From an uncultured Cellulophaga sp. (lineage in GTDB: Bacteria; Bacteroidota; Bacteroidia; Flavobacteriales; Flavobacteriaceae), in NCBI GenBank assembly GCA_947492955.1, contig CANLOV010000001.1:1-64000 (forward strand): a stretch of DNA of 64,000 bases, in the 5' to 3' direction. The position numbers and the translations under genes are program-made. Each line of letters begins with the position of its first letter. The stretch's first letter is position 1. Of this stretch, positions 16,688 through 43,816 are shown piece after piece. The notes under the pieces were generated by a model that worked only from the letters and a program-made list of their open reading frames with translations, was not told the origin of the DNA and did not search any database.

Positions 16688-16699
16688 AATAGTACTAAC

Positions 16700-20236: not shown

Positions 20237-20281
20237 GTAGTCGGGTCTTGAAAAATTAGTGATTTTCAAAAGTGAAAATTA

Positions 20282-23278: not shown

Positions 23279-23459
23279 AGAGTTTTTATCTTTAAATTCT
23301 GTCATAATTCAATTTAAAGTTATTTAAAATAATGTTTTTAAAAAGTCTATATGTTTAATTACAGGTGTTTTACAATTTTTTTAGTGTGTTTCTTAACGTA
23401 TTTTCATAAGATCACAACATTTATTTAAAACTTACTTTTATTGTAGGTATTTTCGTAAA

Positions 23460-28529: not shown

Positions 28530-29360
28530 TTAATGTTCTAAGAAGTCTATTAAATGTTTACGGTATTTGTAATAATCATCGTGTTCTAGTACAGATTTTC
28601 TGGTTCTGGGTCTTTCAAAATCTATAGAAAGTACATCGCCAATTTTTGCTCTAGGCCCACTTGTCATCATAACTACTTTATCTGCCAAAAATATAGCTTC
28701 ATCTACATCATGCGTAATCATTACGGCAGTTATTTTCTCTTTATTCCATATTTCTATTAAAATATCCTGTAATTCACCTCGTGTTAGCGAATCTAACATT
28801 CCAAAAGGCTCATCTAATAATAAAACTTTAGGCTTTATGGCAAAGGCTCTTGCAATACCTACACGTTGTTGCATTCCTTGTGATAGTTCATTTGCTTTCT
28901 TATTAAAAGAACCATCCATACCAACTTTGTGTAAATAATATTTAGCAATGTCTAAACGTTCTTTTTTTGTTGCATGCGGAAATACTTGGTTTACGCCTAA
29001 AGAAACATTTTCTAAAGCTGTCATCCAAGGCATTAAGCTTGGTGCTTGGAAAATAACCCCTCTATCTGGTCCTGGTCCTTTTACAGGATTTCCTAATACA
29101 GATATGTTACCTCCAGATATCGGATTTAAACCTGCAATCATAGATAGCATGGTTGTTTTTCCGCATCCAGAATGCCCAATAATGGTTACAAACTCTTCCC
29201 TCATAATCTGAAGGTTTAAGTTTTCTAACACCACATAATCTCCTTTTGGGGTAGGGTATACTTTTTTAAGATCTTTTAAATCTAGCATTACTTTAGAAGG
29301 GTAGCTTATACCATTTTCTGTAAATGCTGTATCTGTGTTTTGTATAGTATCAGTACTCAT
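28530..29360 (-). CDS. Nitrate ABC transporter ATP-binding protein (NrtD-like)
   Basis: 276 residues. Walker [10 protein letters not shown] (~58-66), signature [14 protein letters not shown], Walker [18 protein letters not shown] and the switch His (MITHDVDEA) are all present. It belongs to the NrtC/NrtD/SsuB/TauB family. Second of two ATPases that presumably heterodimerise under the single permease. It lacks the C-terminal NrtA-like sensor domain of cyanobacterial NrtC. Co-directional and 18 bp after the other ATPase. Confidence 0.88.
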
Positions 29361-29378
29361 AACGTTTACTTTTTTTGG

Positions 29379-30224
29379 TTAAAACTGCCCTACAAAGCTT
29401 TTTGGGCTTATTTCTGGTAATATATATTCTTCATTAGATACAGATTTTCTTTCGTCTCCTATATCCATTAAATATTCTATAATAGCATTCCTAGTTTTTT
29501 TATAATTTTCATTATCGTTTAACTCGGTTTTACTTCTAGGTCTGTCTATATCAATTTTAAATTCTGGTCCTAAAGTTGCTTTTGGTCCTGGTCTTAAAGG
29601 GATTATACGGTCTGCCATATAAATTCCTTCATCAACATCATTGGTAATTAATAATGCAGTACGTTTATCTTTACTCCATATATTTAATATTTCATCTTGT
29701 AGATTACCACGAGTTAAGGCATCTAAAGCTCCTAAAGGCTCGTCCATAATAATCATCTCTGGTTTCATGGCTAAAGCACGAGCTACAGCTACACGCTGGC
29801 GCATTCCTCCAGAAAGTTCTTTTGGTCTTTTGTTTATTGCAGGCGATAAGCTAACCATATCTACGTATTGTTTTACACGCTCCATTAGTTGTGCTTTGCT
29901 TTCTTTTGGAAAAGCTTCTTTTACTGCCATGTATACATTTTGACCAACTGTTAACCAAGGAAGTAAAGAGTAGTTCTGAAAAATTACACCTCTTTCATGA
30001 CTTGTATCTACTACTGGTTCTCCCTTAAATAAAACTTCGCCACTTGTAGGTTGTACTAATCCATTAATTAAATTTACTAGAGTGGTTTTTCCACTTCCTG
30101 TAAAACCAACAATGGCAACAAATTCTCCTTCTTCTATCTCCAAGTTAATATTAGACAACACCTCGGTACTATCTTCTCCTTGTCCGTATGTTTTGTAAAT
30201 GTTTTTTAATTCTAAATATGCCAT
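29379..30224 (-). CDS. Nitrate ABC transporter ATP-binding protein (NrtC-like core)
   Basis: 281 residues. Walker A GFTGSGKTT (~40-48), signature LSGGMRQRVAVARALA and Walker B MIIMDEPLGALDALTR are present; the switch position reads LLITNDVDEG, with Asn where most ABC ATPases have His. The paired ATPase retains the His, so the heterodimer may have one degenerate site, as is known for some asymmetric ABC pairs. 33 bp after the permease gene in the same operon. Confidence 0.85.
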   Translation of the reverse strand: MAYLELKNIYKTYGQGEDSTEVLSNINLEIEEGEFVAIVGFTGSGKTTLVNLINGLVQPTSGEVLFKGEPVVDTSHERGVIFQNYSLLPWLTVGQNVYMAVKEAFPKESKAQLMERVKQYVDMVSLSPAINKRPKELSGGMRQRVAVARALAMKPEMIIMDEPLGALDALTRGNLQDEILNIWSKDKRTALLITNDVDEGIYMADRIIPLRPGPKATLGPEFKIDIDRPRSKTELNDNENYKKTRNAIIEYLMDIGDERKSVSNEEYILPEISPKSFVGQF

Positions 30225-30257
30225 TTTGCTTTCGTTTAATTGTTAGTTTAACATATT

Positions 30258-31364
30258 TTAGATTGCATCTGTTTTAACAAAAGACACAGAGTTTTGAATA
30301 GCCAACATTATTCTATCTAATAAGAATCCTATAATACCGATTACAAACATGGCTACGATTATTTTTGCATTAGAATCGTTAGCTCCATTCTGGAACTCTT
30401 CCCATACAAATAAACCTAAACCTGGACTTTGTGCTAATAATTCAATAGCAATTAATACCATCCAAGCTACAGACAATGTAATTTTTAATCCAGTAAATAT
30501 TAAAGGTAACGATGATGGTAAAATCACTTTAAAAACTTTTTGAAATGTTCCTAATTTTAAAACTTTAGCAACATTTATATAGTCTTTATCTACAGAAGCA
30601 ACTCCCATAGCAGTGTTAACTAATGTTGCCCACATAGAGCATAAGCCTACACTTATAAATGATATGGTAAATGAGCTATCTTCACTAGAATCTATCAATA
30701 TTGTTTTTACAATCATGAAAACAAGTAAGTACCAAACTACTGGTGAAACAGGTTTAAAAATTTGAATAAACCAGTTAAACGCACTTTTTAAAGTTGGACT
30801 AAGACCTATGAATATTCCTAAAGGAACAGCTATTAAAAGTGCTAATAAAAAACCAGCGAACACTGTTTTTAAGCTTCTCACTATTTGATCTACAAAAGAA
30901 GGTCTTCCGGTGTATGTAATAGGATCCTTTCCTTGTTCAATTCTTTTAGCGTTCATAGCAGCAGTTTTTTCTTTAAATGCCGCTTTGTCTGCACTTATTA
31001 TATTGTGATCTTTTAATAGGGATTTAAACGAGCCCCAAACTTGTATAGGTGATGGTAGTGTATTAGGCTGACAACTACTATCTCCTGATGCAATACATAC
31101 TTTTAATGCATCTGCTTCTGCTTGTCCTTGGTCTTCTAATGCCTTAGCAATCTTAAATTCTGCTTCTTTATTGTAAAGGGCTTTGGCACCTGCGTGCCAA
31201 AGACCAATAAACAATAAGATTGAAGCGATAGGAACTAGTGTTTTTCTTAAGATGCTTTTAACTTCATCTTTTTCTAATTTTCCTGTAAAAAGATTTGCGA
31301 TATTTTTAAAAAACCCCATACCTATTAATTGTGTTACTTTATTAAGTGTTACGCTTTGCTTCAT
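30258..31364 (-). CDS. Nitrate ABC transporter permease (NrtB-like)
   Basis: 368 residues, longer than typical NrtB (~280). A first TM helix at ~42-60 (VPIASILLFIGLWHAGAKAL) is followed by a ~100-residue periplasmic insert (~65-155) with two cysteines (KVCIASGDSSCQP). The BPD_transp_1 core from ~165 includes the EAA-type loop (NVAKVLKLGTFQKVFKVILPSSLPLIFTGLKI). It transports nitrate/nitrite across the inner membrane together with the two ATPases and the NrtA-like lipoprotein, whose gene is 25 bp upstream. Confidence 0.87.
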   Translation of the reverse strand: MKQSVTLNKVTQLIGMGFFKNIANLFTGKLEKDEVKSILRKTLVPIASILLFIGLWHAGAKALYNKEAEFKIAKALEDQGQAEADALKVCIASGDSSCQPNTLPSPIQVWGSFKSLLKDHNIISADKAAFKEKTAAMNAKRIEQGKDPITYTGRPSFVDQIVRSLKTVFAGFLLALLIAVPLGIFIGLSPTLKSAFNWFIQIFKPVSPVVWYLLVFMIVKTILIDSSEDSSFTISFISVGLCSMWATLVNTAMGVASVDKDYINVAKVLKLGTFQKVFKVILPSSLPLIFTGLKITLSVAWMVLIAIELLAQSPGLGLFVWEEFQNGANDSNAKIIVAMFVIGIIGFLLDRIMLAIQNSVSFVKTDAI

Positions 31365-31389
31365 CGTTACTTTTTTTAATTACCTTTCC

Positions 31390-32766
31390 TTAATCTTTAT
31401 TCCCTATAGCGAAGCTATTAATGTATCCTATTGGATCTTTAGCATCGTACATGTTACCATCTATAAAGTCTTTAGTTGGCGCTTTATAACCATCTGTTGC
31501 AGGAATATCACTAGCAGGGATATGACCTTCTGCTACTAATAATTTTGCTGCTTTTTCCCAGATATCTGGTCTGTATATATCTTTAATAGTGTTAGCATAC
31601 CATTCTGCTGGCTTAGCTTCTGGAATTTGTCCCCATCTTCTCATTTGTGTTAAGAACCAAGTTCCGTCTGAGTAGAATGGGTATGTTGCATTGTACTTGT
31701 AGAATACGTTAAAGTCTGGCATAGCACGCTTGTCTCCTTTTTCGAACTCAAAAGTTCCTGTCATTGAGTTTGCTAATACTTCTACTGGCGCACCTACGTA
31801 TTGTGGCATAGATAATATTTTTACAGCTTCTGCTCTGTTTTCTGGAACATCTAACCATTTACCAGCTCTAATTAATGCTTTAGTTACAGCTGTTGCAGTG
31901 TTAGGATAATCTTTTACAAACTTCTCTGTCATAACAAATACTTTTTCTGGGTTGTTTTTCCAGATATCGTAGTTTGTAGTTACAGGAACACCAATTCCTT
32001 TAAAAACCGCTTGTTGGTTCCATGGCTCACCCACACAGTATCCGTAGATAGTTCCAGATTCTAATGTTGCTGGCATTTGTGGTGGTGGTGTTACAGATAA
32101 TAATACTTCTGCATCAATTTGACCTTGAACGTTATCAGCTGTATACATTCCAGGGTTAATACCTGCTGCAGCTAACCAATATCTAATTTCATAGTTGTGT
32201 GTAGATACAGGGAATACCATTCCCATTTTAAATGGTTTTCCAGCGTTTTTGTACTCAGTAATTACAGGTTTTAAAGCGTCTGCTTTAATAGGGTGTACTG
32301 GTTTTCCGTCTGAATCTTTTGGTACATTTGGCTTCATTTTAGACCAAACATCATTAGATACTGTAATTCCGTTCCCGTTTAAATCCATAGAGAAAGGAGT
32401 AACTAATTTTGCTTGTCTACCAAAACCAGCACCTGCAGCAATTGGCTGCCCAGCTAACATATGAGAACCATCTAACTGACCATCTATTACACGGTCTAAA
32501 ACGTTTTTCCAGTTAGATTGTGCTTCTACAGAAACAAATAATCCTTCATCTTCAAAAAAACCTTTTTCTTTTGCAATGGCTAAGGGAGCCATATCTGTTA
32601 ATTTAATAAAACCAAAAGTTAATTGTGGTTTTTCAATGTCTAATGTAGCAACTTCTTCTTTTGCTGTTGCTGCAGTTGCTTCGGTACCTTTTTTAGTTTT
32701 CTCACCACAAGCTATAAAAGTTATAGCTAGTAAGAATAAATAAGGCATTTTTTTAAGTAGTCTCAT
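31390..32766 (-). CDS. Nitrate-binding lipoprotein of the ABC transporter (NrtA/CmpA family)
   Basis: 458 residues with a lipoprotein signal (LAITFIACG, Cys20). It matches the NrtA/CmpA/SsuA family: [33 protein letters not shown] at ~50-82, [25 protein letters not shown] and AFVMTEKF-like segments. It captures nitrate (possibly nitrite or bicarbonate in other members) in the periplasm. First gene of the operon with permease, two ATPases and porin; TACGTA-type palindromes lie directly upstream. Confidence 0.9.
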
Positions 32767-33248: not shown

Positions 33249-33286
33249 AAAAAAAGCATACTAATATAGAAATAGTATGCTTTTTT
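33249..33286. terminator. Terminator-like hairpin
   Basis: AAAAAAGCATACTA / TAGTATGCTTTTTT stem with a short A/T loop, flanked by A and T runs, usable in either direction. It lies 118 bp downstream of the pentaheme cytochrome gene, so it could end the globin operon. Confidence 0.75.
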
Positions 33287-33403: not shown

Positions 33404-34111
33404 TTATTTTTTTAAAGTCTTTATCCATTCTGGTTCAGATAAGCCATAGTATTTTTTGTTGGTGCCAAAAGGATCCTCGCCTCCTTTAAAGTATGCTTTT
33501 ATGGCTTTCATAGGAATGGTGTCTTTTAATTTATGAGGAACTTCATAGGTATGGTTACCATGAAAATCATGACATTGTATACAGGTATTCCACTCTTCTA
33601 ATTCTGCTAATTTTTCATGAGAAACATCTAACGGATCATCTTCTACTTCTAAATCTTGATGACAGTTATAGCAGTAGTTAATTTTTGGAATAGTTACGCG
33701 CTCACCGTGGTGTTCTGCGTGGCAAGTTATACAATTTGTAGCATCTATATTTTTTACAGCTTCTTTAAATCTTGGTTCTGTAAAGCTATACGTAGGGTGT
33801 CTGTCGTTAGGTCTGTCGTGGCATTCTAAACAATTATTGGCTACAACATCTTTGGTTCCAAAATCTGCGCTTTCTGTTCTAGCGCCTACCATATAAGATA
33901 AATTAGTTTGTAATTGCTGGGATAAATTCCCATCAGCATCGGCATGGCATGCTACACAAGAAATGTCTTCGTGTCCTGTATTCATAGGTCCTAAAGAAAC
34001 ATATTCTTCAGAAGAATCTAAGGATAAAAAAACAAAAATTAGAATTCCAATGACTAACCCTATGCTTCCTCCTATTACTTGTCTTTTTCTTAATGGACTT
34101 ACTTTAAACAT
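33404..34111 (-). CDS. Membrane-anchored pentaheme cytochrome c
   Basis: 235 residues from the ATG at 34111 (the TTG 12 bases upstream is less likely). One N-terminal helix (VIGGSIGLVIGILIFVFLS, ~12-30) anchors it to the membrane. Five CxxCH heme sites follow: C52VACH, C94LECH, C127ITCH, C147YNCH and C177IQCH. The layout resembles NapC/NrfH-like or cytochrome c3-type carriers but with five hemes. As the last gene of the globin operon it is probably the periplasmic end of an electron chain. The partner and substrate are unknown. Confidence 0.85.
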   Translation of the reverse strand: MFKVSPLRKRQVIGGSIGLVIGILIFVFLSLDSSEEYVSLGPMNTGHEDISCVACHADADGNLSQQLQTNLSYMVGARTESADFGTKDVVANNCLECHDRPNDRHPTYSFTEPRFKEAVKNIDATNCITCHAEHHGERVTIPKINYCYNCHQDLEVEDDPLDVSHEKLAELEEWNTCIQCHDFHGNHTYEVPHKLKDTIPMKAIKAYFKGGEDPFGTNKKYYGLSEPEWIKTLKK

Positions 34112-34131
34112 AAAAAATATCAAAAAAATGG

Positions 34132-35160
34132 TTAGTATGCTATAACTACGTGTTCGCTTTCAGGGTAGCTAATACAGGTTAAGATTTTGCCTTCGTCTAC
34201 TTCTTTTTGTTCTAAAAAATGGCCCTCAGTCATTTTTATATCACCAGAAACACAGGTTGCTTTACAGCTGGCACACATTCCAGAACGGCAAGAGTAGGGT
34301 AATGCAACATTATTGGCCATAGCACCTTGTAAAATAGATTTATTTCCTGCTATTTCAATTTCGTGTGTAGTTCCATCGTGTTTAATCTCTACTTTACTAA
34401 TTAAATCTTTGCCTGTTATTTTTACTTGCGGACTTTTAAAAAGTTCTACTTTAATTTTACTTCTTTCAATTCCTTTTTCAGCTAAAATATTTTTAATACT
34501 TTCCATGTAGCCAAATGGACCGCAGATCATATAAGTGTGGTCACTAAAAAGGAGGTTGTGTTTTTTAAAGATGTTTGCTATTAAATCTCCAGTAGCTAGT
34601 CCTGAATAATATTTTGATAAATTTTGATTGTTTTCTGAAAGAATATGGGCAACAGAAAATTTTATTGGATATTTTTTTTCTAATTCTTCTATCTCTGAAC
34701 GAAATATAATACTGTCAAAATTTTGATTGGCATAAATTAATAAAATGTCCGAGCTAGGCTCGTTTGATAATATAGAGTTAATAATAGAGTAAATAGGGGT
34801 TATACCACTACCACCTGCAAATAGCACATATTGCTTTGTATTACTTTTTTTAGGTTCTATATAAAAGCTACCTGTTGGTTTGTCTATTTCTAGGGCATCA
34901 CCAATTTTTAAATAATCGTGTACGTAATTAGATACTAATCCTTTTTCTACACGTTTTATAGTAACTCTTAAATCTTTGTCTAAGTAGGGATTGCTACTAA
35001 AAGAATAGGCTCTTTTGTGTACTTCATTATTTATGGGGAAATGAAGTGTTAAAAACTGTCCTGGTTTGTAGCGTACTTTTTTAAATAAGCTATTATTTTT
35101 AAAAGATACAGTAACTGCATCTTGTGTTTCTTTTATAATATCTTTTACAATCAATTTCAT
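34132..35160 (-). CDS. FAD/NAD(P)H reductase with C-terminal plant-type 2Fe-2S ferredoxin domain
   Basis: 342 residues. FAD-binding RAYSFSSNP (~50-58) and phosphate loop, NAD(P)-binding YVLFAGGSGITPIYSII (~110-126), nucleotide CGPFGYME (~212-219), and a C-terminal ferredoxin domain with C-x4-C-x2-C (CRSGMCASC) and a final Cys near LTCISYPE. This is the architecture of PaaE/HmpX/flavohaemoglobin-type reductases. In context it may reduce the globin encoded upstream (a split flavohaemoglobin) or feed the membrane cytochromes. 9 bp after the membrane cytochrome gene. Confidence 0.88.
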   Translation of the reverse strand: MKLIVKDIIKETQDAVTVSFKNNSLFKKVRYKPGQFLTLHFPINNEVHKRAYSFSSNPYLDKDLRVTIKRVEKGLVSNYVHDYLKIGDALEIDKPTGSFYIEPKKSNTKQYVLFAGGSGITPIYSIINSILSNEPSSDILLIYANQNFDSIIFRSEIEELEKKYPIKFSVAHILSENNQNLSKYYSGLATGDLIANIFKKHNLLFSDHTYMICGPFGYMESIKNILAEKGIERSKIKVELFKSPQVKITGKDLISKVEIKHDGTTHEIEIAGNKSILQGAMANNVALPYSCRSGMCASCKATCVSGDIKMTEGHFLEQKEVDEGKILTCISYPESEHVVIAY

Positions 35161-35168
35161 AATATCCT

Positions 35169-35648
35169 TTATTTATAATAAAACACAATGCCTATATGAA
35201 ACAATAATAGAATGGTAATTATAAATGAGAATGCAACATGCACAATCATCCACCCTTTAAACAATGCATCACTATTGTTTTTTAGTACATCTAAATTAAT
35301 ATAGCCTATAAGTGTATTGGCAAAGAATATATAAGATAGTAATGCTAAATATCCGTAGCCAAAACCTACACTGTGTATATAAAATAGTAAAGGACTAATT
35401 GCACCTATCCATTTATGTAATTCAGTCATTTTCATAGCATGCTTTCGTAATTTAGGTATAACTCTAGTAAATGTTAATATCCATTGAAAGGCTATAAATA
35501 AAGCAATTCCTAATCCAGACCATCTTTTATATAACTCACCTTGTTGTAGTTCTACTAGCCAAGTCCATCTTAATTTTAAAAAAAACTGAAGAAAGAATAT
35601 AAGTAATAAGATAAGACCTAGTATAGTAGAATTAATATTCTTTTTCAC
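35169..35648 (-). CDS. Four-helix cytochrome b-like membrane protein
   Basis: 159 residues, GTG start at 35648. Four TM helices (~8-24, 45-63, 80-110, 128-158) carry regularly placed histidines (HKWIGAISPLLFYIHSVGFGYG and VHVAFSFIITILLLFHIGIVF) suited to bis-His heme b ligation. I do not recognise a named family; it resembles ferric-reductase/cytochrome b transmembrane modules. It lies between the DUF3365 cytochrome and the flavin reductase, so it probably passes electrons across the membrane. The assignment as a cytochrome b is inferred from the histidines. Confidence 0.6.
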   Translation of the reverse strand: MKKNINSTILGLILLLIFFLQFFLKLRWTWLVELQQGELYKRWSGLGIALFIAFQWILTFTRVIPKLRKHAMKMTELHKWIGAISPLLFYIHSVGFGYGYLALLSYIFFANTLIGYINLDVLKNNSDALFKGWMIVHVAFSFIITILLLFHIGIVFYYK

Positions 35649-35707
35649 AAATATGTTAATTATGGTTTATAAAAAGAGATCTGAATTAAAGGATTGCTTT
35701 GTGTTTT

Positions 35708-36550
35708 TTAGTTTGCTGCGATTAACTTTTTCATAGTACCGTAAGAAGATAATTTTCTAACGCTATCTAAAAACACTTCTGGTGTTGGTAAATACTTACC
35801 TTCAGCAGGCCATTTATCTCCTATAACTGGTTTTTCACTTTCTTTAAAAGCAGCAACTTCATCTAAGTATGCCATGTAGATATCTACAGTTCCCTTAGAG
35901 TAAGCGTTTAAAACATCTATGGTAGCTTTGTAGGTTAAAGAATCTTTAGGATATTGCCAAGTAGTTGCTCCCATTACATCTCCTAATACCCAATCATCTT
36001 TTGCTGTTTGCTTATGGTCATTGTGGCAAGATACGCATGCTCCTGCACTAGCCATATCTGCAAACATGGCAGTGTGTAATTTTTGATCTTCATCATAAAA
36101 AAACTGAGGCTTTTGGTCTACCTTAATTTGCTTAAATAATTCGGCTTGTTTTCCTTCGAATTTGTTAGCATTGTTAATAGGGAAATCTGAACCTAAGTAT
36201 AATCCTAAAGGTACTGGCCCTTTTCTAATACTAGTAGCTACACCTCTTAAGAAAAGTGCAGGCAACGGACCCGCTTCTACATCGTCTTTTCTCCAATCTT
36301 CATCGAATTTCATTCCTTGTTTTTTACCCTTACCAACAATGGCTTTGGTGTATAAAGTTCTTGTAATATCATTCTCTACAGCAACCATTTCTAATACTTC
36401 TTCTACAGAGAATACATTTTTTTCTGCACTTGCAGTTGTTGCTGCTTTTTCTGGAACACCGCCACAAGAATTAAGAACCAATAGGGAAGCTATTAAAGTT
36501 AATGTGTAGAGGAACAATCTTTTTTCTAAAGTTACTTTTTCAATTTTCAT
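35708..36550 (-). CDS. DUF3365 (Tll0287-like) monoheme c lipoprotein
   Basis: 280 residues with a lipoprotein signal (SLLVLNSCGG, Cys29). The C-terminal two thirds match the Tll0287-like/DUF3365 fold with one CxxCH (GACVSCHNDH, near residue 167). This family binds heme c in a PAS-like fold and occurs as sensor or redox domains. A predicted cell-envelope location fits a periplasmic electron carrier or ligand sensor. It follows the globin gene by 30 bp and precedes the membrane cytochrome. Role unknown. Confidence 0.82.
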   Translation of the reverse strand: MKIEKVTLEKRLFLYTLTLIASLLVLNSCGGVPEKAATTASAEKNVFSVEEVLEMVAVENDITRTLYTKAIVGKGKKQGMKFDEDWRKDDVEAGPLPALFLRGVATSIRKGPVPLGLYLGSDFPINNANKFEGKQAELFKQIKVDQKPQFFYDEDQKLHTAMFADMASAGACVSCHNDHKQTAKDDWVLGDVMGATTWQYPKDSLTYKATIDVLNAYSKGTVDIYMAYLDEVAAFKESEKPVIGDKWPAEGKYLPTPEVFLDSVRKLSSYGTMKKLIAAN

Positions 36551-36580
36551 AGTTGTATGGATTTATTATAGATTTATTTT

Positions 36581-36994
36581 TTAATATGATGCTTTGATCA
36601 TTACAGAGGACATAGTACCGTAAACAGAAACCCATGCATCTTTTACTTCTGTAGTAAAATCTTCTCCTAAGCCAGCGCCTAGTGTGTGTATTAAAGCTGC
36701 GCCAACAGTATCGTAATGAGAAGGCTCTACTTTATATTCTACATGCCTTTTTCCTAAGTTCTCTAAAACAGGAATTAGCATGTCTAAATTTTTTAAACCT
36801 GCTACAGCGCTTGCTAGCATAGTCATTAATTTATTTCCTTGTGCAGCCATGGCTTCGTCACTAGATGGGAATAAGTGTTTAAGAGCTGGGTCTAACTCAA
36901 ACAATTTGGCGTAGAATATTTCAGCTGCTGTGGCTGCTATTGGTTTTACTTTTTCAAATGATTCTTGTACTAGTGTAATTGTTTTTTCTTCCAT
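36581..36994 (-). CDS. Single-domain globin
   Basis: 137 residues, typical of Vitreoscilla-type single-domain bacterial haemoglobins. Proximal His at 84 (ENLGKRHVEYKVEPSHY), Tyr28 at the B10-like position (EIFYAKLFELDP) and Gln52 at the E7-like position (AAQGNKLMTML), a polar pocket associated with O2/NO chemistry. No reductase domain is fused; a flavin/2Fe-2S reductase is encoded three genes downstream. NO dioxygenation or nitrite handling is plausible in a nitrate locus. First gene of the operon, 38 bases after an operator. Confidence 0.9.
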   Translation of the reverse strand: MEEKTITLVQESFEKVKPIAATAAEIFYAKLFELDPALKHLFPSSDEAMAAQGNKLMTMLASAVAGLKNLDMLIPVLENLGKRHVEYKVEPSHYDTVGAALIHTLGAGLGEDFTTEVKDAWVSVYGTMSSVMIKASY

Positions 36995-37031: not shown

Positions 37032-37047
37032 TACGTATTAATACTTG
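37032..37047 (-). promoter_or_regulatory. Operator upstream of the globin operon
   Basis: TACGTATTAATACTTG, matching 14 of 16 positions of the perfect palindrome at 39450, 38 bases before the globin ATG. No TAnnTTTG box abuts it, so the promoter may be activator-dependent or placed differently. Confidence 0.55.
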
Positions 37048-37174: not shown

Positions 37175-37201
37175 AAAAAGACTGCTAAAGGCAGTCTTTT
37201 T
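37175..37201 (-). terminator. Terminator of the NarK-Crp/Fnr operon
   Basis: AAAAAGACTGC / GCAGTCTTTTT with a 5-base loop, 47 bases downstream of the Crp/Fnr stop and just upstream of the globin promoter region. Confidence 0.85.
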
Positions 37202-37247: not shown

Positions 37248-37976
37248 TTAGCTGTCTAAATAGTAATTGTGTTCAGAAATTTCTTTCTTAAGTTTTTCAA
37301 CATCAATGATTCCTATTTTTTTTCCTCTTGTAGTAATAAGAAATTCTTTTTTTAAGGTTGAAAAAATACGTATTACCTGTTCTTCGGTAGTACCAGCGTA
37401 ATCTGCATATTCTTTTCTACTTAAAGGCAAGTTTATAAAACCATTAAGTTGCCCAAATTTTCGGTTTACAAATAATAAAGTATCTACAACGCGTTCCCTT
37501 ACGGTCATTTGAGATAGTGATTTTACTTTTGCTTCGCTTTTATTTAATGCATTGGCATAAAAAAGCATTAAGTCGTACGTAAATACAGGTTCGGTTTTTA
37601 ATACCTGTTGTAATAAGTCTTTAGAAAAATAACACAAAGTAGTATCTTCTATAGCTATGGCAGCAATAGAATAATACTCTTCTGTGCCAAAACCTCTGTG
37701 ACCTATAATTTCGCCATTTTTAGCAAAACGTACTATTTGCTCTCTACCGTTAATACCAGTTCTAAATACTTTTACTTTTCCAGAAAGAATAAAGAATAAA
37801 CCATTTACTGGGGCGCCTTCCATAATAAACTGTTGCCCTTTTTTACATTTTATTTCGTTTTTTTTTTCTGCAAATTCCTGAACAATATCAGAAGAGATGT
37901 TTCGATTAATTAAACATTTCTGATTTTCGCATACAACGCAACTTACTCTAGATAAAGGTGTTTTTTTTGATATCAT
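37248..37976 (-). CDS. Crp/Fnr-family regulator with possible Fe-S cysteines
   Basis: 242 residues from the ATG at 37976 (a TTG at 38000 overlaps the spacer). The cyclic-nucleotide-like beta-roll (~35-145) includes KCKKGQQFIMEGAPVNGLFFILSGKVKVF. The C-terminal HTH reads LSRKEYADYAGTTEEQVIRIFSTLKKE (~188-214). Cysteines C13-x2-C16-x4-C21 and C115 are spaced almost as the four cluster ligands of E. coli FNR (C20-x2-C23-x5-C29, C122). It may sense O2 or NO through an Fe-S cluster. It is 36 bp after the NarK gene and the leading candidate for the regulator that binds TACGTA-N4-TACGTA in this locus. Confidence 0.85.
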   Translation of the reverse strand: MISKKTPLSRVSCVVCENQKCLINRNISSDIVQEFAEKKNEIKCKKGQQFIMEGAPVNGLFFILSGKVKVFRTGINGREQIVRFAKNGEIIGHRGFGTEEYYSIAAIAIEDTTLCYFSKDLLQQVLKTEPVFTYDLMLFYANALNKSEAKVKSLSQMTVRERVVDTLLFVNRKFGQLNGFINLPLSRKEYADYAGTTEEQVIRIFSTLKKEFLITTRGKKIGIIDVEKLKKEISEHNYYLDS

Positions 37977-38012
37977 TGTATGTGATTTATAATTGTTCAA
38001 AATTATTATTTT

Positions 38013-39413
38013 TTATTTATCTGCACCCGATAATGCTACTTTAGGTTTGTTTTCTGTTTCTTCAGATGTTGAAAATTTTATCGTTAATGAAACCAATGCC
38101 GTTACAGCAACTAAAGTTCCAATTACAAAGTATGCGCTAGAAACTGCACCGGCAGATGCCAGTGTTTGTGCAGCTTTTGTTGCTTCTTCTCCTAAGCCAG
38201 CATTGGCACTAATAGCTTCACTTTCTGCTACTGCAGATTTAGATTTAAGTAATATAGCAGCTAAAAAAGCACCTACATTACCACCAGCACCTACAATACC
38301 AGAGATAGACCCTATTGCTTTTTTGTTTATAAAAGGTACTACAGAAAAAGTTGCGCCTTCTGCCATTTGTACACTTAAACTAAAAGCTACTAAAAATAGG
38401 ATTCCAACGGCTAAACTAGTGGTGGTAGAGAAAATGGATAGTACTATACCTTCAATGGCTAATATTACGGCTAAGAAAATAACACGACCTCTAAGTCCTT
38501 TTAGTTTTCCAAATTTGTCGCCAAAATAACCGCCAAGTGTTCTAGCGAAAATATTCATCAAGGCAAATGACAAAACTAGGTTCCCGGCGGTTGATCTTTC
38601 TAATCCAAATCTATTTTGTAAATAATCATCCATAGTACCGTAAACCGTTAGTTCCATTCCAAAACAAGCAGCATAAACCATAAATAATATCCAAACTCTA
38701 TAATCTTTTAATACGCTTGTAAAAGAAGCCTCGTCCTTTTTTAAGGTGGGCATTTTTCCTGCTTTCTTTAATTCAGAAAAGTTTCCTTCTGGAGTATCTT
38801 GTGTAAAAAAGTAGTATACTAATCCCATGCTAAAGCAAATAATACCTGCTATAACCATAGAATAACGCCAAGCAATATCGTCTGCAATACCAAAACTAAT
38901 AACAGCGGCAGCAATTAATGGCATTCCTAAACGGTTAGCGCCACCACCTAAATTTCCCCAACCTGCAGAAGTTGCATTTGCAGTTCCAACAATATTTGGG
39001 GCAAACATAATAGAAGTGTGAAATTGAGTAATTACAAAAGATGCACCTATAAACCCAATAAATAATCTACAGATTAAAAATTGTAATGGTGTTTGTACAA
39101 ATCCTATTAAAATTACAGGTATAGCTCCTATTATTAATAAATAAGTATAACATATTCTAGGGCCATACTTGTCGCATAGTTTACCAATAAGTAAACGTGC
39201 AAATACTGTACCCGTTACCGCTAAAATAATAGAGTTCCATTTTTGAGAAGGAGTTAATCCTAAGTCTTTTACAACATCTGGCATAAAGGGAACTATCCCG
39301 AACCAGGCGAAAAAACAGATAAAAAATGCGATTGAAGTAATCCAAAAAGTACGTATAGGGGTACTCTTTACATTAAGTAAGTCAAGCTTAGTAGCTTTTG
39401 ATGATGTGTTCAT
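38013..39413 (-). CDS. Nitrate/nitrite MFS transporter (NarK/NasA family)
   Basis: 466 residues with about 12 TM helices. Nitrate-signature-like segments include GNLGGGANRLGMPLIAAAV (~150-168) and VPFINKKAIGSISGIVGAGGNVGAF near 355-380, typical of NarK-family proteins. A longer C-terminal loop is Ala/Ser-rich. It imports nitrate and/or exports nitrite. First gene of an operon with the Crp/Fnr regulator, under the strongest operator of the window. Its presence beside the ABC system gives two independent nitrate uptake routes. Confidence 0.9.
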   Translation of the reverse strand: MNTSSKATKLDLLNVKSTPIRTFWITSIAFFICFFAWFGIVPFMPDVVKDLGLTPSQKWNSIILAVTGTVFARLLIGKLCDKYGPRICYTYLLIIGAIPVILIGFVQTPLQFLICRLFIGFIGASFVITQFHTSIMFAPNIVGTANATSAGWGNLGGGANRLGMPLIAAAVISFGIADDIAWRYSMVIAGIICFSMGLVYYFFTQDTPEGNFSELKKAGKMPTLKKDEASFTSVLKDYRVWILFMVYAACFGMELTVYGTMDDYLQNRFGLERSTAGNLVLSFALMNIFARTLGGYFGDKFGKLKGLRGRVIFLAVILAIEGIVLSIFSTTTSLAVGILFLVAFSLSVQMAEGATFSVVPFINKKAIGSISGIVGAGGNVGAFLAAILLKSKSAVAESEAISANAGLGEEATKAAQTLASAGAVSSAYFVIGTLVAVTALVSLTIKFSTSEETENKPKVALSGADK

Positions 39414-39941: not shown

Positions 39942-39966
39942 TGGTGTAACTTATAAAGTGTCATGT

Positions 39967-42483
39967 ATGAAGACAATTATTGTTGTTGGTAACGGTATGG
40001 TAGGATACAAGTTTTGTGAAAAATTTGTGTCTCAAGACGGTTCTAAAGATTTTAAGATAACAGTGTTTGGCGAAGAGCCAAGACCTGCTTATGATAGAGT
40101 ACATCTAAGTGAATTTTTTGAAAGCCAAGACGCTAAGGCTTTAGAAATGGCTCCAAGAAGTTGGTATGAGGAAAATGGTGTAGAATTAATTACAGATGAA
40201 CGTGTTTCAGATATAAACCGTACAGATAAAAAAATAACTACAGCTAAAGATCGTGAGTTTTCTTATGATTATTTAGTTATGGCAACAGGATCGTCTCCTT
40301 TTGTGCCTCCAATAAAGGGAGTGGAAAAAGAAGGTGTTTTTGTATATAGAACTATCGAAGATTTAGAAGGGATGTTAGCTTATGCTGCAAAACTTAATAA
40401 AGAAAAGCCAAATGCTAGAGCAGCAGTTTTAGGAGGAGGTTTATTGGGTTTAGAAGCAGGTAAGGCAGTTTTAGATATGGGCTTAGAACCCCATATTGTA
40501 GAATTTGCTCCTAAGTTAATGCCAAGACAATTAGATTCTAGAAGTAGCCAAGTATTAAAGCAAAAATTAGAATCTATAGGATTAAATATTCATTTAAGTA
40601 AAGCTACAAACCAAATATTAGGAGATGAGGCTATTACAGGAATGGAGTTTGGAGAAGATGATAGGTTAGATGTAGATATGCTTATTATCTCTGCAGGGAT
40701 TCGTCCAAGAGATGAGTTGGCAAAGGCTTGTGGTTTAGATGTTGGTGTTCGTGGAGGTATTGTTGTAGATAACACCATGAAAACTTCAGATGATAGTATT
40801 TACGCTATCGGAGAAATTGCATTGTACAACCAAATGATATATGGTTTAGTAGCTCCAGGCTACGATATGGCAGATGTTGCAGCAAAGCAAATTTTGGGTA
40901 ATACAGATGCTGTTATGCCAGATGATATAGATATGTCTACTAAATTAAAATTAATAGGAGTAGATGTGGCAAGTTTTGGAGAACCATTTATGCCGGCATC
41001 TAAAGGACATTCTATCATTTTTGAAAATAAAACACAGTATCTATACAAAAGAATAAATGTTAGTTTAGATGGTAAATCTTTACTTGGAGGTATTCTAGTA
41101 GGCGATGCATCAGATTATAATATGCTACACCAAGTATATTTAAACGGTATGGCAATACCAGAAGATCCAGCGCAACTTATTTTACCAGCTAGTGATGGTG
41201 CATCAGCATTTGGAGATGTTACCGATTTACCAGACGAAGCTCAGGTGTGTTCTTGTGAAAGTGTTACAAAAGGGCAAATATGTGCGGCTATTGAAAATGG
41301 AGAGGCTACAGATGTTGCAGGTGTTGTAAGTTGTACAAAAGCAGGTACAGGTTGTGGTGGTTGTAAGCCAATGGTTACCGATTTAACCAATGCAACACTT
41401 AAATCTTTAGGTATAGAAGTTAAAGAGGGTGTTTGTGAACACTTTGATTTAAACAGACAAGATTTATATAAGATTATACAAGTAAAAGAGTATACAACTT
41501 TTAATGAAGTATTAGATAATCACGGAAACGGAGGTCATGGATGTGAGTTGTGTAAGCCACTTATTGCATCATTAATGGCTACTATTAATGCAGATACAGC
41601 CAATAAAGAATATGCTATACAAGATTCTAATGACAGGTTCTTAGCAAATATCCAACGTAATGGTACGTATTCTGTAGTACCTCGTGTTCCTGGAGGGGAA
41701 ATTACACCAGATAAATTAATAGCACTTGGAGAAATTGCTAAGAAATACGATTTGTATACTAAAGTTACTGGTGGTGTTCGTATCGATTTATTTGGAGCTA
41801 CATTAAATCAGTTGCCATTAATATGGAAAGAATTAATTAGCCATGGTTTTGAAAGCGGACATGCCTATGGTAAATCACTTCGTACAGTAAAAACATGTGT
41901 TGGTTCAACATGGTGTCGTTACGGTATGGATGAGAGTGTAAGCTTTGGTATAGAACTAGAAAATAGATATAGAGGTATACGTGCCCCTCATAAAATTAAA
42001 GGTGGTGTCTCTGGTTGCATTCGTGAGTGTGCAGAAGCACGTGGTAAAGATTTTGGTTTAATTGCTGTTGAAGGAGGTTGGAACCTTTATGTTGGTGGAA
42101 ATGGTGGAGCAACGCCACGCCACGCAGAATTGCTAGCAGAACAAATAGATAACGAAACGGTTATTAAATATTTAGACCGTTACTTAATGTTCTACATGCG
42201 TACAGCAAAGCCGCTACAACGTACAGCTGCATGGCAAGAAAGACTTGAAGGTGGTTTAGATTATTTAAAAGAAGTAATTATAGACGACAAATTAGGTATT
42301 GTAGAAGATCTTGAAAAAGAAATGCAAACCCTGGTTAATAAATTTGAGTGTGAGTGGACACAAGCTATTAATGATCCAGAAATGATGAAGCGTTTTAGTC
42401 ATTTTGTAAATAGTGAAGATGATGATGATAACTTGGTATTTGTTCCTATGAGAGATCAAAAAATGCCAGAACCTTGGAATTAA
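39967..42483 (+). CDS. nirB: NADH-dependent assimilatory nitrite reductase, large subunit
   Basis: 838 residues from the ATG at 39967 (GTG at 39958 also in frame). FAD domain (IIVVGNGMVGYKF, then AVLGGGLLGLEAG), BFD-like 2Fe-2S domain (CSCESVTKGQI ... GTGCGGCKPMV, ~420-470), a second Cys-rich segment (GHGCELCKPLI), then the NIR/SIR domains. Siroheme/4Fe-4S ligands are complete: C644-x5-C650 (TCVGSTWC) and C684-x3-C688 (GCIREC). It reduces nitrite to ammonium with NAD(P)H in the cytoplasm. First gene of the operon with NirD; siroheme is supplied partly by the gene at 45690. Confidence 0.95.
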   Translation: MKTIIVVGNGMVGYKFCEKFVSQDGSKDFKITVFGEEPRPAYDRVHLSEFFESQDAKALEMAPRSWYEENGVELITDERVSDINRTDKKITTAKDREFSYDYLVMATGSSPFVPPIKGVEKEGVFVYRTIEDLEGMLAYAAKLNKEKPNARAAVLGGGLLGLEAGKAVLDMGLEPHIVEFAPKLMPRQLDSRSSQVLKQKLESIGLNIHLSKATNQILGDEAITGMEFGEDDRLDVDMLIISAGIRPRDELAKACGLDVGVRGGIVVDNTMKTSDDSIYAIGEIALYNQMIYGLVAPGYDMADVAAKQILGNTDAVMPDDIDMSTKLKLIGVDVASFGEPFMPASKGHSIIFENKTQYLYKRINVSLDGKSLLGGILVGDASDYNMLHQVYLNGMAIPEDPAQLILPASDGASAFGDVTDLPDEAQVCSCESVTKGQICAAIENGEATDVAGVVSCTKAGTGCGGCKPMVTDLTNATLKSLGIEVKEGVCEHFDLNRQDLYKIIQVKEYTTFNEVLDNHGNGGHGCELCKPLIASLMATINADTANKEYAIQDSNDRFLANIQRNGTYSVVPRVPGGEITPDKLIALGEIAKKYDLYTKVTGGVRIDLFGATLNQLPLIWKELISHGFESGHAYGKSLRTVKTCVGSTWCRYGMDESVSFGIELENRYRGIRAPHKIKGGVSGCIRECAEARGKDFGLIAVEGGWNLYVGGNGGATPRHAELLAEQIDNETVIKYLDRYLMFYMRTAKPLQRTAAWQERLEGGLDYLKEVIIDDKLGIVEDLEKEMQTLVNKFECEWTQAINDPEMMKRFSHFVNSEDDDDNLVFVPMRDQKMPEPWN

Positions 42484-42509
42484 TAAAACAGCTTTAAAAT
42501 TTAAAAGAT

Positions 42510-42887
42510 ATGGAAGCAATTCTAGATACATATAAAACAACCAAATTAGAAGATGTAAAAGTTTGGTTTAAAGCGGCATCAGTAAATGATTTTCCAATAG
42601 ACGGAGGTGCTTGTGTTAAATATAAAGGCAAACAAATAGCTGTTTTCAATTTTGAAAGATTAGGCAAATGGTATGCTTGCCAAAATGTTTGTCCACATAA
42701 AATGGAGATGGTTTTATCTCGTGGTATGATAGGAGACGATAAAGGAGCTCCAAAAGTTGCTTGCCCATTACATAAAAAAACCTTTTCCCTAGAGAATGGA
42801 GAAAATTTAAATGGAGATATAGATGCTATTGCAACTTATCCTGTTAAAATAGAAGATGATCTTGTGTATATAGGTTTTACAGAATAG
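42510..42887 (+). CDS. nirD: Nitrite reductase small subunit with Rieske ligands
   Basis: 125 residues, NirD/Rieske-like fold. The ligands of a 2Fe-2S Rieske cluster are present, C-x-H (NVCPHKM) and C-x2-H (ACPLHKK). They are missing in the E. coli NirD type but found in NasE/assimilatory forms. It partners NirB, 26 bp upstream. The C-terminal codons (IEDDLVYIGF) recur as a relic at 43162. Confidence 0.92.
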   Translation: MEAILDTYKTTKLEDVKVWFKAASVNDFPIDGGACVKYKGKQIAVFNFERLGKWYACQNVCPHKMEMVLSRGMIGDDKGAPKVACPLHKKTFSLENGENLNGDIDAIATYPVKIEDDLVYIGFTE

Positions 42888-43200: not shown

Positions 43201-43225
43201 TTTGAGCATAAACCTAGAGCAAAAA

Positions 43226-43816
43226 ATGATAAAGTCAGAGAAATTAATAGCAGCGTTTAAACGTTTTGATGCAGCTAATCAACAAGATCCAAATACTGAA
43301 GAATACCAAGGAAAAACGTATGCAAAAGAAGTTTTGTATGCTGTTAGAATGACAGAGAAATTAGATGTCTTTGCTCCAGACGCATCAGAACCTTTGCAAC
43401 TTACAGCACGTTGTCAGCATATTTGTAGATGGGAAATACCTAGAGATTCTTATGAAATGAATAGGGTTGGGTATTTAAAATGGAGACAAGATTTAAAAAA
43501 GTTTCATGCTCAAAAATCTGGAGAAATCTTAAAAGAAGTAGGGTATACCCAAGAAACGATAGATAAAGTTGCGTTTTTACTAGAGAAAAAACAATTAAAG
43601 AAAAATGAAGATACCCAAACATTAGAAGATGTTATTTGTTTGGTGTTTTTAGAGTTTTATTTTGAACCCTTTGCAGCAAAGCATTCCGAGGAAAAAACCA
43701 TAGATATTCTTCAGAAAACATGGAGAAAAATGTCTAAAAAAGGACAAGAAGCAGCATTAAAATTGCCATTGTCTCAAAACGCACTAAGTCTAGTAAGTAA
43801 AGCACTTAATTCATAA
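43226..43816 (+). CDS. DUF4202 protein of nitrate-assimilation loci
   Basis: 196 residues from the ATG at 43226 (TTG at 43202 also in frame). Family features: AAFKRFDAANQQDPN, LYAVRMTEKLDVFAPDASEPLQLTARCQHICRWEIPR with His/Cys/Trp clusters, YLKWRQDLKKFHA, and a helical His-containing C-terminal half. DUF4202 genes often accompany nitrate/nitrite reductases across phyla; the biochemical function is not known to me. Conserved histidines suggest metal binding or an HD-like hydrolase fold, which is an inference. Confidence 0.88.
   Translation: MIKSEKLIAAFKRFDAANQQDPNTEEYQGKTYAKEVLYAVRMTEKLDVFAPDASEPLQLTARCQHICRWEIPRDSYEMNRVGYLKWRQDLKKFHAQKSGEILKEVGYTQETIDKVAFLLEKKQLKKNEDTQTLEDVICLVFLEFYFEPFAAKHSEEKTIDILQKTWRKMSKKGQEAALKLPLSQNALSLVSKALNS

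What the first reader, a model, noticed from the sequence alone, without database searches (positions are those of the whole stretch)
33404..36994. Five-gene globin / cytochrome c / cytochrome b-like / flavin-2Fe-2S reductase / pentaheme operon inside a nitrate locus
A single-domain globin, a DUF3365 heme lipoprotein, a four-helix His-rich membrane protein, a PaaE-type reductase and a membrane-anchored pentaheme cytochrome are adjacent, co-directional and preceded by the locus operator. I know of no named system with this set. The globin plus separate reductase resembles a split flavohaemoglobin (NO dioxygenase), while the cytochromes look like a cytoplasm-to-periplasm electron path. Inference: an NO- or nitrite-detoxifying or redox-balancing chain.
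Basis: partly seen in the sequence, partly recalled or inferred. Interest (0 to 1): 0.75.

Follow-up and report, generated by a model that had tools for sequence, protein, structure and literature searches.

The report
Heme electron relay in nitrate locus
Some Flavobacteriaceae carry a conserved five-gene heme cassette, mostly beside their nitrate genes, that looks like a cytoplasmic nitric-oxide-removing globin plus an electron wire carrying NAD(P)H electrons across the inner membrane to a heme protein on the outside, a combination I could not find described.

Summary
The five genes lie at 33404-36994 (- strand), between a regulon operator and a strong hairpin, so they look like one transcription unit. 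They stand side by side in the same order in 16 of 199 Flavobacteriaceae genomes (own included). DUF3365, membrane protein, reductase and pentaheme stay adjacent in 80 of 80 further fetched loci; the globin heads the row in 70 of 80. Nitrate genes lie in the held DNA in 72 of 80. The whole cassette also sits in Flammeovirga (Cytophagales), with no nitrate gene in the 31 kb held.

Best reading: a two-compartment nitric-oxide/nitrite stress module. The globin acts in the cytoplasm. The reductase feeds a ferric-reductase-like membrane heme protein (four invariant histidines in two 14-spaced pairs), which passes electrons to a five-heme periplasmic cytochrome and on to a DUF3365 c-heme lipoprotein. 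That lipoprotein lacks the axial cysteine of the redox-type relatives, so it probably has a labile ligand site. The route is inferred; NO as substrate is the weakest step. Split flavohaemoglobin is only partly right: the reductase is tied to the membrane protein, not the globin. Globin plus flavoprotein in nitrate assimilation is known (Bradyrhizobium); the transmembrane arm appears new.

The parts
36581..36994 (-). single-domain globin (137 aa), no signal peptide by eye, so probably cytoplasmic; invariant Y28, Q52, H84, Y94
   Evidence: PF00042 70.9 bits; nearest solved relatives 3s1i/3ubc (Hell's Gate globin, name recalled), 3wfw, then Vitreoscilla-type 1vhb; alignment of 16
35708..36550 (-). 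DUF3365/Tll0287-like (sCache_heme) c-heme lipoprotein (280 aa): lipobox Cys29, single CVSCH, no other Cys in the mature protein
   Evidence: PF11845 over cut-off; Foldseek top hit 5b82 Tll0287; 69 of 69 complete homologues (of 80 loci) lack a further mature Cys
35169..35648 (-). membrane protein (159 aa) with five long helices, GTG start, invariant H78/H92 and H137/H151; ferric-reductase-like, probably two b hemes
   Evidence: 16 of 16 members match PF01794 weakly, best 4e-5; hhalign with fused ferric reductases aligns all four His; model pLDDT 83.5
34132..35160 (-). FAD/NAD(P)H/[2Fe-2S] reductase (342 aa), PaaE-like
   Evidence: FAD_binding_6, NAD_binding_1, Fer2 over cut-off; PaaE model 267.6 bits, below its cut-off 420.8
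33404..34111 (-). membrane-anchored pentaheme cytochrome c (235 aa), five CXXCH plus six further invariant His
   Evidence: 80 of 80 homologues have exactly five CXXCH; alignment of 16
37032..37047 (.). operator TACGTATTAATACTTG, one mismatch from TAMGTA-N4-TACKTA, 37 bases before the globin start
   Evidence: perfect site within 300 bases upstream of the module in 71 of 80 loci, expectation 0.06
33250..33286 (-). terminator-like hairpin after the pentaheme gene (14 bp stem, loop of 9, U run)
   Evidence: -14.9 kcal/mol, z -6.7; not listed by the pattern scan, which allows loops of 3-8 only
37175..37201 (-). terminator-like hairpin between the Crp/Fnr gene and the globin; separates the two units
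37248..38000 (-). Crp/Fnr-family regulator with FNR-like cysteines (C21, C24, C29, C52); probable reader of the operator (inferred)
   Evidence: Pfam; Cys conserved in 57, 57, 57 and 56 of 57 rows
38013..39413 (-). NarK-family nitrate/nitrite transporter (context)
   Evidence: TIGR00886 305.4 bits, just below its cut-off 311.7
28530..32766 (-). nrtABCD-type nitrate ABC transporter (context; only the binding protein was family-searched)
   Evidence: B, C and D named by eye
39958..42887 (+). nirBD assimilatory nitrite reductase (context; nirD named by eye)
   Evidence: NirB equivalog 1001 bits over cut-off

Best explanation
The cassette is a nitrate-regulon stress module with two arms. (1) Cytoplasmic arm: the single-domain globin removes NO formed as a by-product of nitrate/nitrite reduction, turning it over with O2 to nitrate (inferred from family). 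(2) Transmembrane arm: NAD(P)H reduces the FAD/2Fe-2S reductase in the cytoplasm; electrons cross the membrane through two b hemes of the ferric-reductase-like protein (H78/H137 inner, H92/H151 outer), enter the TM-anchored pentaheme cytochrome in the periplasm, and end on the DUF3365 c-heme lipoprotein. That heme lacks the axial Cys of redox-type relatives, so its labile site would bind and reduce (or keep reduced for trapping) NO or nitrite arriving from outside or made by periplasmic enzymes. Shown here: gene order, conservation, heme motifs, missing Cys, regulon. Inferred: electron direction, partners, substrate. I hold the transmembrane electron route at about 0.65 and NO/nitrite as its business at about 0.5.
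For: Strict unit: 16 of 16 module genomes among 199; DUF3365-membrane protein-reductase-pentaheme adjacent in 80 of 80 loci, match-to-match gaps at most 223, 76 and 200 bases; median gap 8 bases between membrane protein and reductase (n=51) and 10 between reductase and pentaheme (n=79). Same five genes in the same order in Flammeovirga, with all four His and five CXXCH kept. FRD likeness: PF01794 in 16 of 16 members, best 4e-5; shared HKW signature and all four His aligned with nine ferric reductases. DUF3365: CXXCH kept, no axial Cys in 69 of 69; in a preprint the Cys-lacking protein of P. azotoformans bound NO tightly and the Cys-ligated one of P. putida did not (PMC12889525; parts 1-3 of 6 read). 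Nitrate regulon: operator in 71 of 80, nitrate genes in 72 of 80 loci. The window's genome has no NrfA over cut-off and no match to the L018-type NapA better than its own NasA, so the arm need not serve those enzymes. Precedent: Bradyrhizobium globin and flavoprotein detoxify NO arising in nitrate assimilation (PMC4724949).
Against: No experiment. The window protein scores 19.3 bits on PF01794 against a cut-off of 28, and Foldseek found no ferric reductase. hhalign probabilities are low (44% and 23%). The preprint finds the stand-alone DUF3365 type redox-like, not NO-sensing, and this one stands alone; its C59A variant without the Cys also lost NO quickly. 22 of 38 nrtA genomes lack the module, and 19 of those 22 lack any globin match, so nitrate use does not need it. 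NrfA is enriched among module genomes (10 of 16 against 16 of 183), which also fits a rival. 8 of 80 loci and the Flammeovirga stretch show no nitrate gene in the held DNA. One module genome (L096, a MAG) showed no globin. No operator was found near the Flammeovirga copy.
Confidence: 0.45

Rival explanations
1. Split flavohaemoglobin with extras: the reductase mainly reduces the globin (as Flp is proposed to do for Bjgb), and the membrane/c-heme proteins are a separate function in the same operon.
For: Globin heads the row in 70 of 80 loci and adjoins in all 16 family genomes; Flp of Bradyrhizobium is proposed to feed Bjgb and NasC; the reductase matches the flavohaemoprotein model with 134.9 bits.
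Against: The reductase stays with membrane protein and pentaheme in 80 of 80 loci, while the globin is not at the head in 10 of 80; a C-terminal 2Fe-2S domain is not part of flavohaemoglobin (recalled).
Confidence: 0.2
2. Electron supply to periplasmic nitrate/nitrite reductases: the wire delivers electrons to Nap or Nrf enzymes.
For: NapA-type in 10 of 80 and NrfA in 8 of 80 loci; NrfA at E<1e-100 in 10 of 16 module genomes against 16 of 183 others, p=1.2e-6; the pentaheme resembles NrfB/DmsE faintly.
Against: The window's genome lacks NrfA over cut-off and shows no NapA of the L018 type; 6 of 16 module genomes lack NrfA at E<1e-100; 37 of 80 loci carry the Nas/Nir type.
Confidence: 0.13
3. 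Redox balancing or ferric/heme reduction: the membrane arm dumps excess NAD(P)H electrons on periplasmic or extracellular acceptors such as ferric iron or O2; the nitrate link reflects redox or iron demand.
For: Ferric-reductase-like membrane protein; multiheme wire; the Flammeovirga copy follows hemA and has no nitrate genes in the held 31 kb; tested DUF3365 proteins yield superoxide with O2.
Against: Operator and gene linkage to nitrate (71 and 72 of 80 loci); a globin and a Cys-lacking DUF3365 heme are not expected of an iron reductase.
Confidence: 0.15
4. Sensor relay: the DUF3365 lipoprotein senses periplasmic NO and reports through the heme wire in reverse to the Crp/Fnr regulator.
For: A DUF3365 domain fused to a signalling module behaves as an NO sensor; the adjacent regulator has FNR-like cysteines.
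Against: No signalling domain in the module; the regulator stands outside the unit and is not found in the held DNA in 24 of 80 loci.
Confidence: 0.05

Closest known systems
Bradyrhizobium narK-bjgb-flp-nasC nitrate assimilation / NO detoxification operon (PMC4724949; abstract and passages read)
   Same: single-domain VHb-type globin, separate NAD(P)H flavoprotein, NarK, NrtABC-type transporter genes and nitrate reductase in one locus; nitrate-responsive
   Different: no membrane heme protein, pentaheme or DUF3365 named there; Flp is needed for the nitrate reductase, whereas NasA here seems to carry its own FAD/NAD part (by eye); regulator NasS-NasT, here a Crp/Fnr gene in the locus
sCache_heme (DUF3365/Tll0287) family (PMC12889525 preprint; parts 1-3 of 6 read)
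   Same: PF11845, CXXCH, extracytoplasmic, stand-alone
   Different: lacks the axial Cys of the stand-alone redox type; lipoprotein; fixed in an operon with a probable transmembrane donor chain
Ferric reductase / NADPH-oxidase-like transmembrane domain (PF01794) with fused FAD/NAD domain
   Same: two His pairs 13-14 residues apart on two helices, HKW signature, NAD(P)H flavin partner
   Different: split into two genes, 2Fe-2S domain added, five helices, below the Pfam cut-off, followed by a pentaheme
NssR-cgb of Campylobacter (passage in PMC1274295)
   Same: Crp/Fnr-type regulator (type recalled) activating a single-domain NO-resistance globin
   Different: other operator and partners; no nitrate locus or heme wire mentioned in the passage seen

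Membership tests
Flavohaemoglobin (Hmp, PRK13289) | globin, FAD and NAD domains in one polypeptide, model score over 432 bits | tested here: not met
   globin 80.0 bits and reductase 134.9 bits as separate genes
Bradyrhizobium-type globin/flavoprotein nitrate system | single-domain globin and a flavoprotein gene within a nitrate locus | tested here: met
Bradyrhizobium-type globin/flavoprotein nitrate system | NO-protective phenotype | not testable with these tools
   needs mutants
sCache_heme / DUF3365 | PF11845 over cut-off and CXXCH | tested here: met
   28.6 bits against 24.1; one CXXCH in 69 of 69
sCache_heme / DUF3365 | Cache-like fold as in Tll0287 | tested here: inconclusive
   top Foldseek hit 5b82, E 2.4e-3, model pLDDT only 71.6
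Tll0287-type stand-alone redox DUF3365 | Cys/His axial ligation | tested here: not met
   no Cys other than lipobox and CXXCH in the mature protein, 69 of 69
Ferric reductase transmembrane domain PF01794 | score over curated cut-off | tested here: not met
   window protein 19.3 bits against 28
Ferric reductase transmembrane domain PF01794 | two pairs of His, about 13-14 apart, on two helices | tested here: met
   H78/H92, H137/H151 invariant in 44 rows, aligned to the reductase His
Ferric reductase transmembrane domain PF01794 | fold match to a solved member | tested here: inconclusive
   no hit at E<=0.001 of any kind
PaaE (TIGR02160) | score over 420.8 bits | tested here: not met
   267.6 bits
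NrfB / DmsE multiheme cytochromes | model score over cut-off | tested here: not met
   21.8 against 184 and 34.2 against 192.2 bits
FNR-type regulator | N-terminal Cys cluster for an Fe-S centre | tested here: inconclusive
   C-x2-C-x4-C plus C52 conserved, but PRK11161 only 72 of 228 bits and cluster binding not shown

The most novel reading that the evidence does not exclude
A previously undescribed class of NO-handling enzyme system: cytoplasmic NAD(P)H drives a split ferric-reductase/pentaheme wire that reduces NO (or nitrite) at an open c-heme of a periplasmic DUF3365 lipoprotein, working together with a cytoplasmic globin, so that one operon clears NO on both sides of the inner membrane.
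Probability: 0.3. Interest if true: 0.8.

Novelty: new variant of a known kind. Interest (0 to 1): 0.6.

Why it matters
If true, it gives a function to stand-alone DUF3365 heme proteins in one lineage, adds a transmembrane NAD(P)H-to-periplasm arm to the known globin/flavoprotein way of surviving NO made during nitrate use, and outlines a nitrate regulon (TAMGTA-N4-TACKTA) in Flavobacteriaceae, many of them marine consumers of algal matter (recalled). It is directly testable in cultured Maribacter, Zobellia or Flavivirga strains.

Tried and rejected
Foldseek of the membrane-protein model against the PDB gave no ferric reductase and nothing at E<=0.001. Profile searches of the solved-structure sequences with the membrane protein and DUF3365 profiles gave nothing at E<=1. 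hhalign against single ferric reductase proteins was uninformative (probability 5.8 and 0.5); only the nine-sequence alignment gave E 2.3e-4 and 9e-4. Searches for PF01794 proteins among relatives gave few (5 of 31 genomes at E<=0.001; 1 of 247 at E<=1e-8). Of the six loci found I used L125 in the alignment and L130; L126-L129 were dropped. The rest of the alignment came from plasmid records (92 matching, 40 listed, 8 fetched). Phylum samples found the membrane protein in 1 of 395 genomes (own) and the DUF3365 profile in 2 of 316 (own, and a 402-aa frame not followed up).

My first operator pattern (ACGTA-N4-TACGT) was too strict; TAMGTA-N4-TACKTA was then chosen by eye on the same upstream regions, so its 71 of 80 count is descriptive, with a Markov-1 expectation of 0.06 as control. 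I at first read two globin hits in Aquimarina as two genes; one search shows one 294-aa gene with two globin domains in L095. My first NrfA count (17 of 183 others) was one too high; a recount gives 16 of 183, with no change to the odds. The sigma-70 promoter scan found fewer sites than shuffles (24 against 34.0) and is not used.

Paper searches without a description of this gene set: no papers; 10 listed; 4 listed; on Tll0287/DUF3365 listed 4 and 3 papers, of which I read parts of one. All are open-licence PMC only. (Hell's Gate globin) was seen as a listing only.


Full report
Observation. Five ORFs run adjacent and co-directional on the - strand from 36994 to 33404. In order of transcription: a 137-aa globin (PF00042, 70.9 bits), a 280-aa DUF3365/Tll0287-like lipoprotein with one CXXCH (PF11845, 28.6 bits against 24.1), a 159-aa membrane protein with no Pfam match at E<=0.001, a 342-aa FAD/NAD/2Fe-2S reductase and a pentaheme cytochrome c with an N-terminal membrane helix. 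Upstream lie a Crp/Fnr gene, a narK-like gene and a divergent nirBD; downstream lie nrtABCD and, farther, nasA (nirD, nrtBCD and nasA named by eye). A hairpin of -14.9 kcal/mol with a U run at 33250-33286 (z -6.7) follows the unit, and another at 37175-37201 separates it from the Crp/Fnr gene. Co-transcription is inferred from this, not shown.

Conservation. In 199 Flavobacteriaceae genomes the membrane protein occurs in 16, DUF3365 in the same 16, and the globin lies beside them in all 16. Of the other 183 genomes, 11 have a globin match. All 15 other loci carry the five genes in the same order. A scan of one genome per species (84,980 species) gave 97 relatives of the membrane protein, of which the best 80 were kept; all titled genera are Flavobacteriaceae (taxonomy recalled) and one record is titled only Bacteroidia. 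In these 80, DUF3365, membrane protein, reductase and pentaheme follow each other on one strand in 80 of 80, with match-to-match gaps of at most 223, 76 and 200 bases. The globin precedes them in 70, within 343 bases; 6 have two globin hits on the other strand downstream (one fused 294-aa gene where I read it, L095); 4 have no globin in the held DNA. Of those 4 genomes, 3 have such a globin pair elsewhere and one (L096, a MAG) has none. The 15 and the 80 overlap in part (several contig lengths agree), so they are not added. The scan rests on two short peptide patterns and favours close relatives, so the true range is wider: Flammeovirga kamogawensis (Cytophagales) carries hemA-globin-DUF3365-membrane protein-reductase-cytochrome c3 in the same order on a 640-kb plasmid, with no nitrate gene annotated in the 31 kb held (the PLSDB gene table is incomplete). 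Its chromosomes could not be searched.

Nitrate link. nrtA (E<=1e-50) is found in 38 of 199 family genomes and in all 16 with the module (Fisher p=1.4e-13); related genomes are not independent, so the p value is only a guide. 22 nrtA genomes lack the module, and 19 of these have no globin match, so the module is an accessory. Of the 80 loci, 72 hold nitrate transport or reduction genes: nrt in 70, Nas/Nir in 37, NapA-type in 10, NrfA in 8; ccsBA heme-attachment genes lie near in 29 (cut-offs 45% identity to window genes, 50% for NapA and NrfA, 35% for ccsBA). NrfA is found at E<1e-100 in 26 of 199 genomes, 10 of them among the 16 (p=1.2e-6). The window's own genome has only a sub-threshold PF02335 match, and the L018 NapA query hits its own NasA plus a 24%-identical stretch. 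So neither NrfA nor a NapA of that type is a general requirement.

Operator. TAMGTA-N4-TACKTA occurs perfectly within 300 bases upstream of the module in 71 of 80 loci, against 0.06 expected from Markov resampling; 228 of 255 perfect sites in the loci lie within 350 bases upstream of a scored gene: globin 69, nrtA 55, crp 35, nasA 19, narK 18, nirB 13, DUF3365 9, porin 6, response regulator 4. I chose the pattern on these same regions, so this is descriptive. The layout of two five-base halves around four free bases fits Crp/Fnr regulators (HcpR2 motif GTAACnnnnGTTAC, PMC1274295 passages), and the neighbouring Crp/Fnr protein keeps C21, C24 and C29 in 57 of 57 and C52 in 56 of 57 rows. That this protein reads the operator, and that it holds an Fe-S cluster, is inference. 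Flammeovirga has no such site upstream of hemA or elsewhere in the stretch.

Membrane protein. H78, H92, H137 and H151 are invariant in 44 rows and in Flammeovirga. Two helices each carry a His pair 14 apart, as in the ferric reductase / NADPH oxidase group (recalled); the ferric reductases aligned here have invariant H78, K79, W80, H92, H170, H183 in L125 numbering. All 16 members match PF01794 at E<=1, best 4e-5, but the window protein has 19.3 bits against a cut-off of 28. Profile comparison gave E 2.3e-4 (probability 44%) and 9e-4 (23%), the latter aligning all four histidines. Foldseek found no such fold. I therefore say 'ferric-reductase-like', not a member. The adjacent reductase matches the FAD/NAD part of the fused reductase L125 (27% identity over 212 columns), so membrane protein plus reductase look like that enzyme split in two. 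By the positive-inside rule (by eye) H78/H137 face the cytoplasm and H92/H151 the periplasm.

c-heme proteins. The pentaheme keeps five CXXCH in 80 of 80 and six further invariant His in 16 rows, enough for bis-His ligation of all five hemes, that is, a wire and not an enzyme (inference). DUF3365 keeps one CXXCH and no other Cys in the mature part in 69 of 69 complete sequences (11 of 80 loci gave no complete one by my rule); the 10 with a fourth Cys have it before the lipobox. In a preprint the Cys-ligated stand-alone protein of P. putida binds NO weakly and is called redox-type, while a signalling-type protein without that Cys binds NO tightly, and all tested forms make superoxide with O2 (PMC12889525). 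The P. putida C59A variant also lost NO quickly, so a missing Cys alone does not make a tight NO binder. The present protein mixes the two types: stand-alone but Cys-free. The AlphaFold model (pLDDT 71.6) has Tll0287 as top Foldseek hit, E 2.4e-3.

Globin. Nearest solved relatives are 3s1i/3ubc (Hell's Gate globin, name recalled), 3wfw and the Vitreoscilla-type 1vhb. Y28, Q52, H84 and Y94 are invariant and correspond by recall to TyrB10, GlnE7, HisF8 and TyrG5 of flavohaemoglobins; the H-helix Glu of those enzymes seems not conserved (recall, by eye).

Mechanism. Taken together, the most likely working is two-armed: the globin for cytoplasmic NO, and NAD(P)H to reductase to b hemes to pentaheme to DUF3365 for a periplasmic acceptor, with NO or nitrite the likeliest. 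Bradyrhizobium narK-bjgb-flp-nasC (PMC4724949, abstract and passages) shows that globin plus flavoprotein protects from NO made in nitrate assimilation; that half is known. The transmembrane half is what I could not find described (searches, open-licence papers only).

Verdict. Real, strongly conserved, and more than ordinary; new combination of known families; function inferred.

Noticed in passing
L131:13087-18253 (NZ_CP076130.1, Flammeovirga kamogawensis plasmid): The whole five-gene module preceded by hemA (glutamyl-tRNA reductase) on a 640-kb plasmid, with no nitrate genes annotated in the held 31 kb and transposase genes (one IS3-type) just downstream.
   Followed up: partly
L095:15963-16847: A 294-aa protein of two fused globin domains on the opposite strand, downstream of a globin-less module in Aquimarina; paired hits also in five other loci and in three further genomes elsewhere.
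   Followed up: partly
L095:12278-12640: A further small protein with a CxxCH motif and lipobox (by eye) directly after the pentaheme gene, followed by ccsB/ccsA-like heme-attachment genes.
   Followed up: no
L033:9782-10249 (own genome, contig C4): A second single-domain globin (56% identical) in the window's genome, beside folE- and msrA-like genes (by eye), in a stretch without matches to the nitrate genes other than an ABC ATPase.
   Followed up: no
L035:9857-10270: A nitrate locus (nirBD, crp, nrtABCD, nasA) with a 45%-identical globin but none of the other four module genes in the held DNA.
   Followed up: no
window 37248-38000: Crp/Fnr protein with conserved C21, C24, C29, C52 (and C123 in 50 of 57), a possible Fe-S O2/NO sensor for the nitrate regulon.
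   Followed up: partly
window 43202-43816: DUF4202 protein between nirD and a histidine kinase with a PilJ domain; matched in 12 of 80 loci.
   Followed up: no
window 15251-20269: nasA-type gene with extra pyridine-nucleotide-reductase-like and BFD-like parts (by eye), followed by a protein ending in a rubredoxin-like domain (by eye).
   Followed up: no
window 20543-26447: Two long, similar tandem secreted-protein genes inside the nitrate locus, between nasA and the response regulator.
   Followed up: no
search: Globin-like matches of 28-35% identity inside 444-455-aa frames in eight family genomes; longer than a usual flavohaemoglobin, not identified.
   Followed up: no
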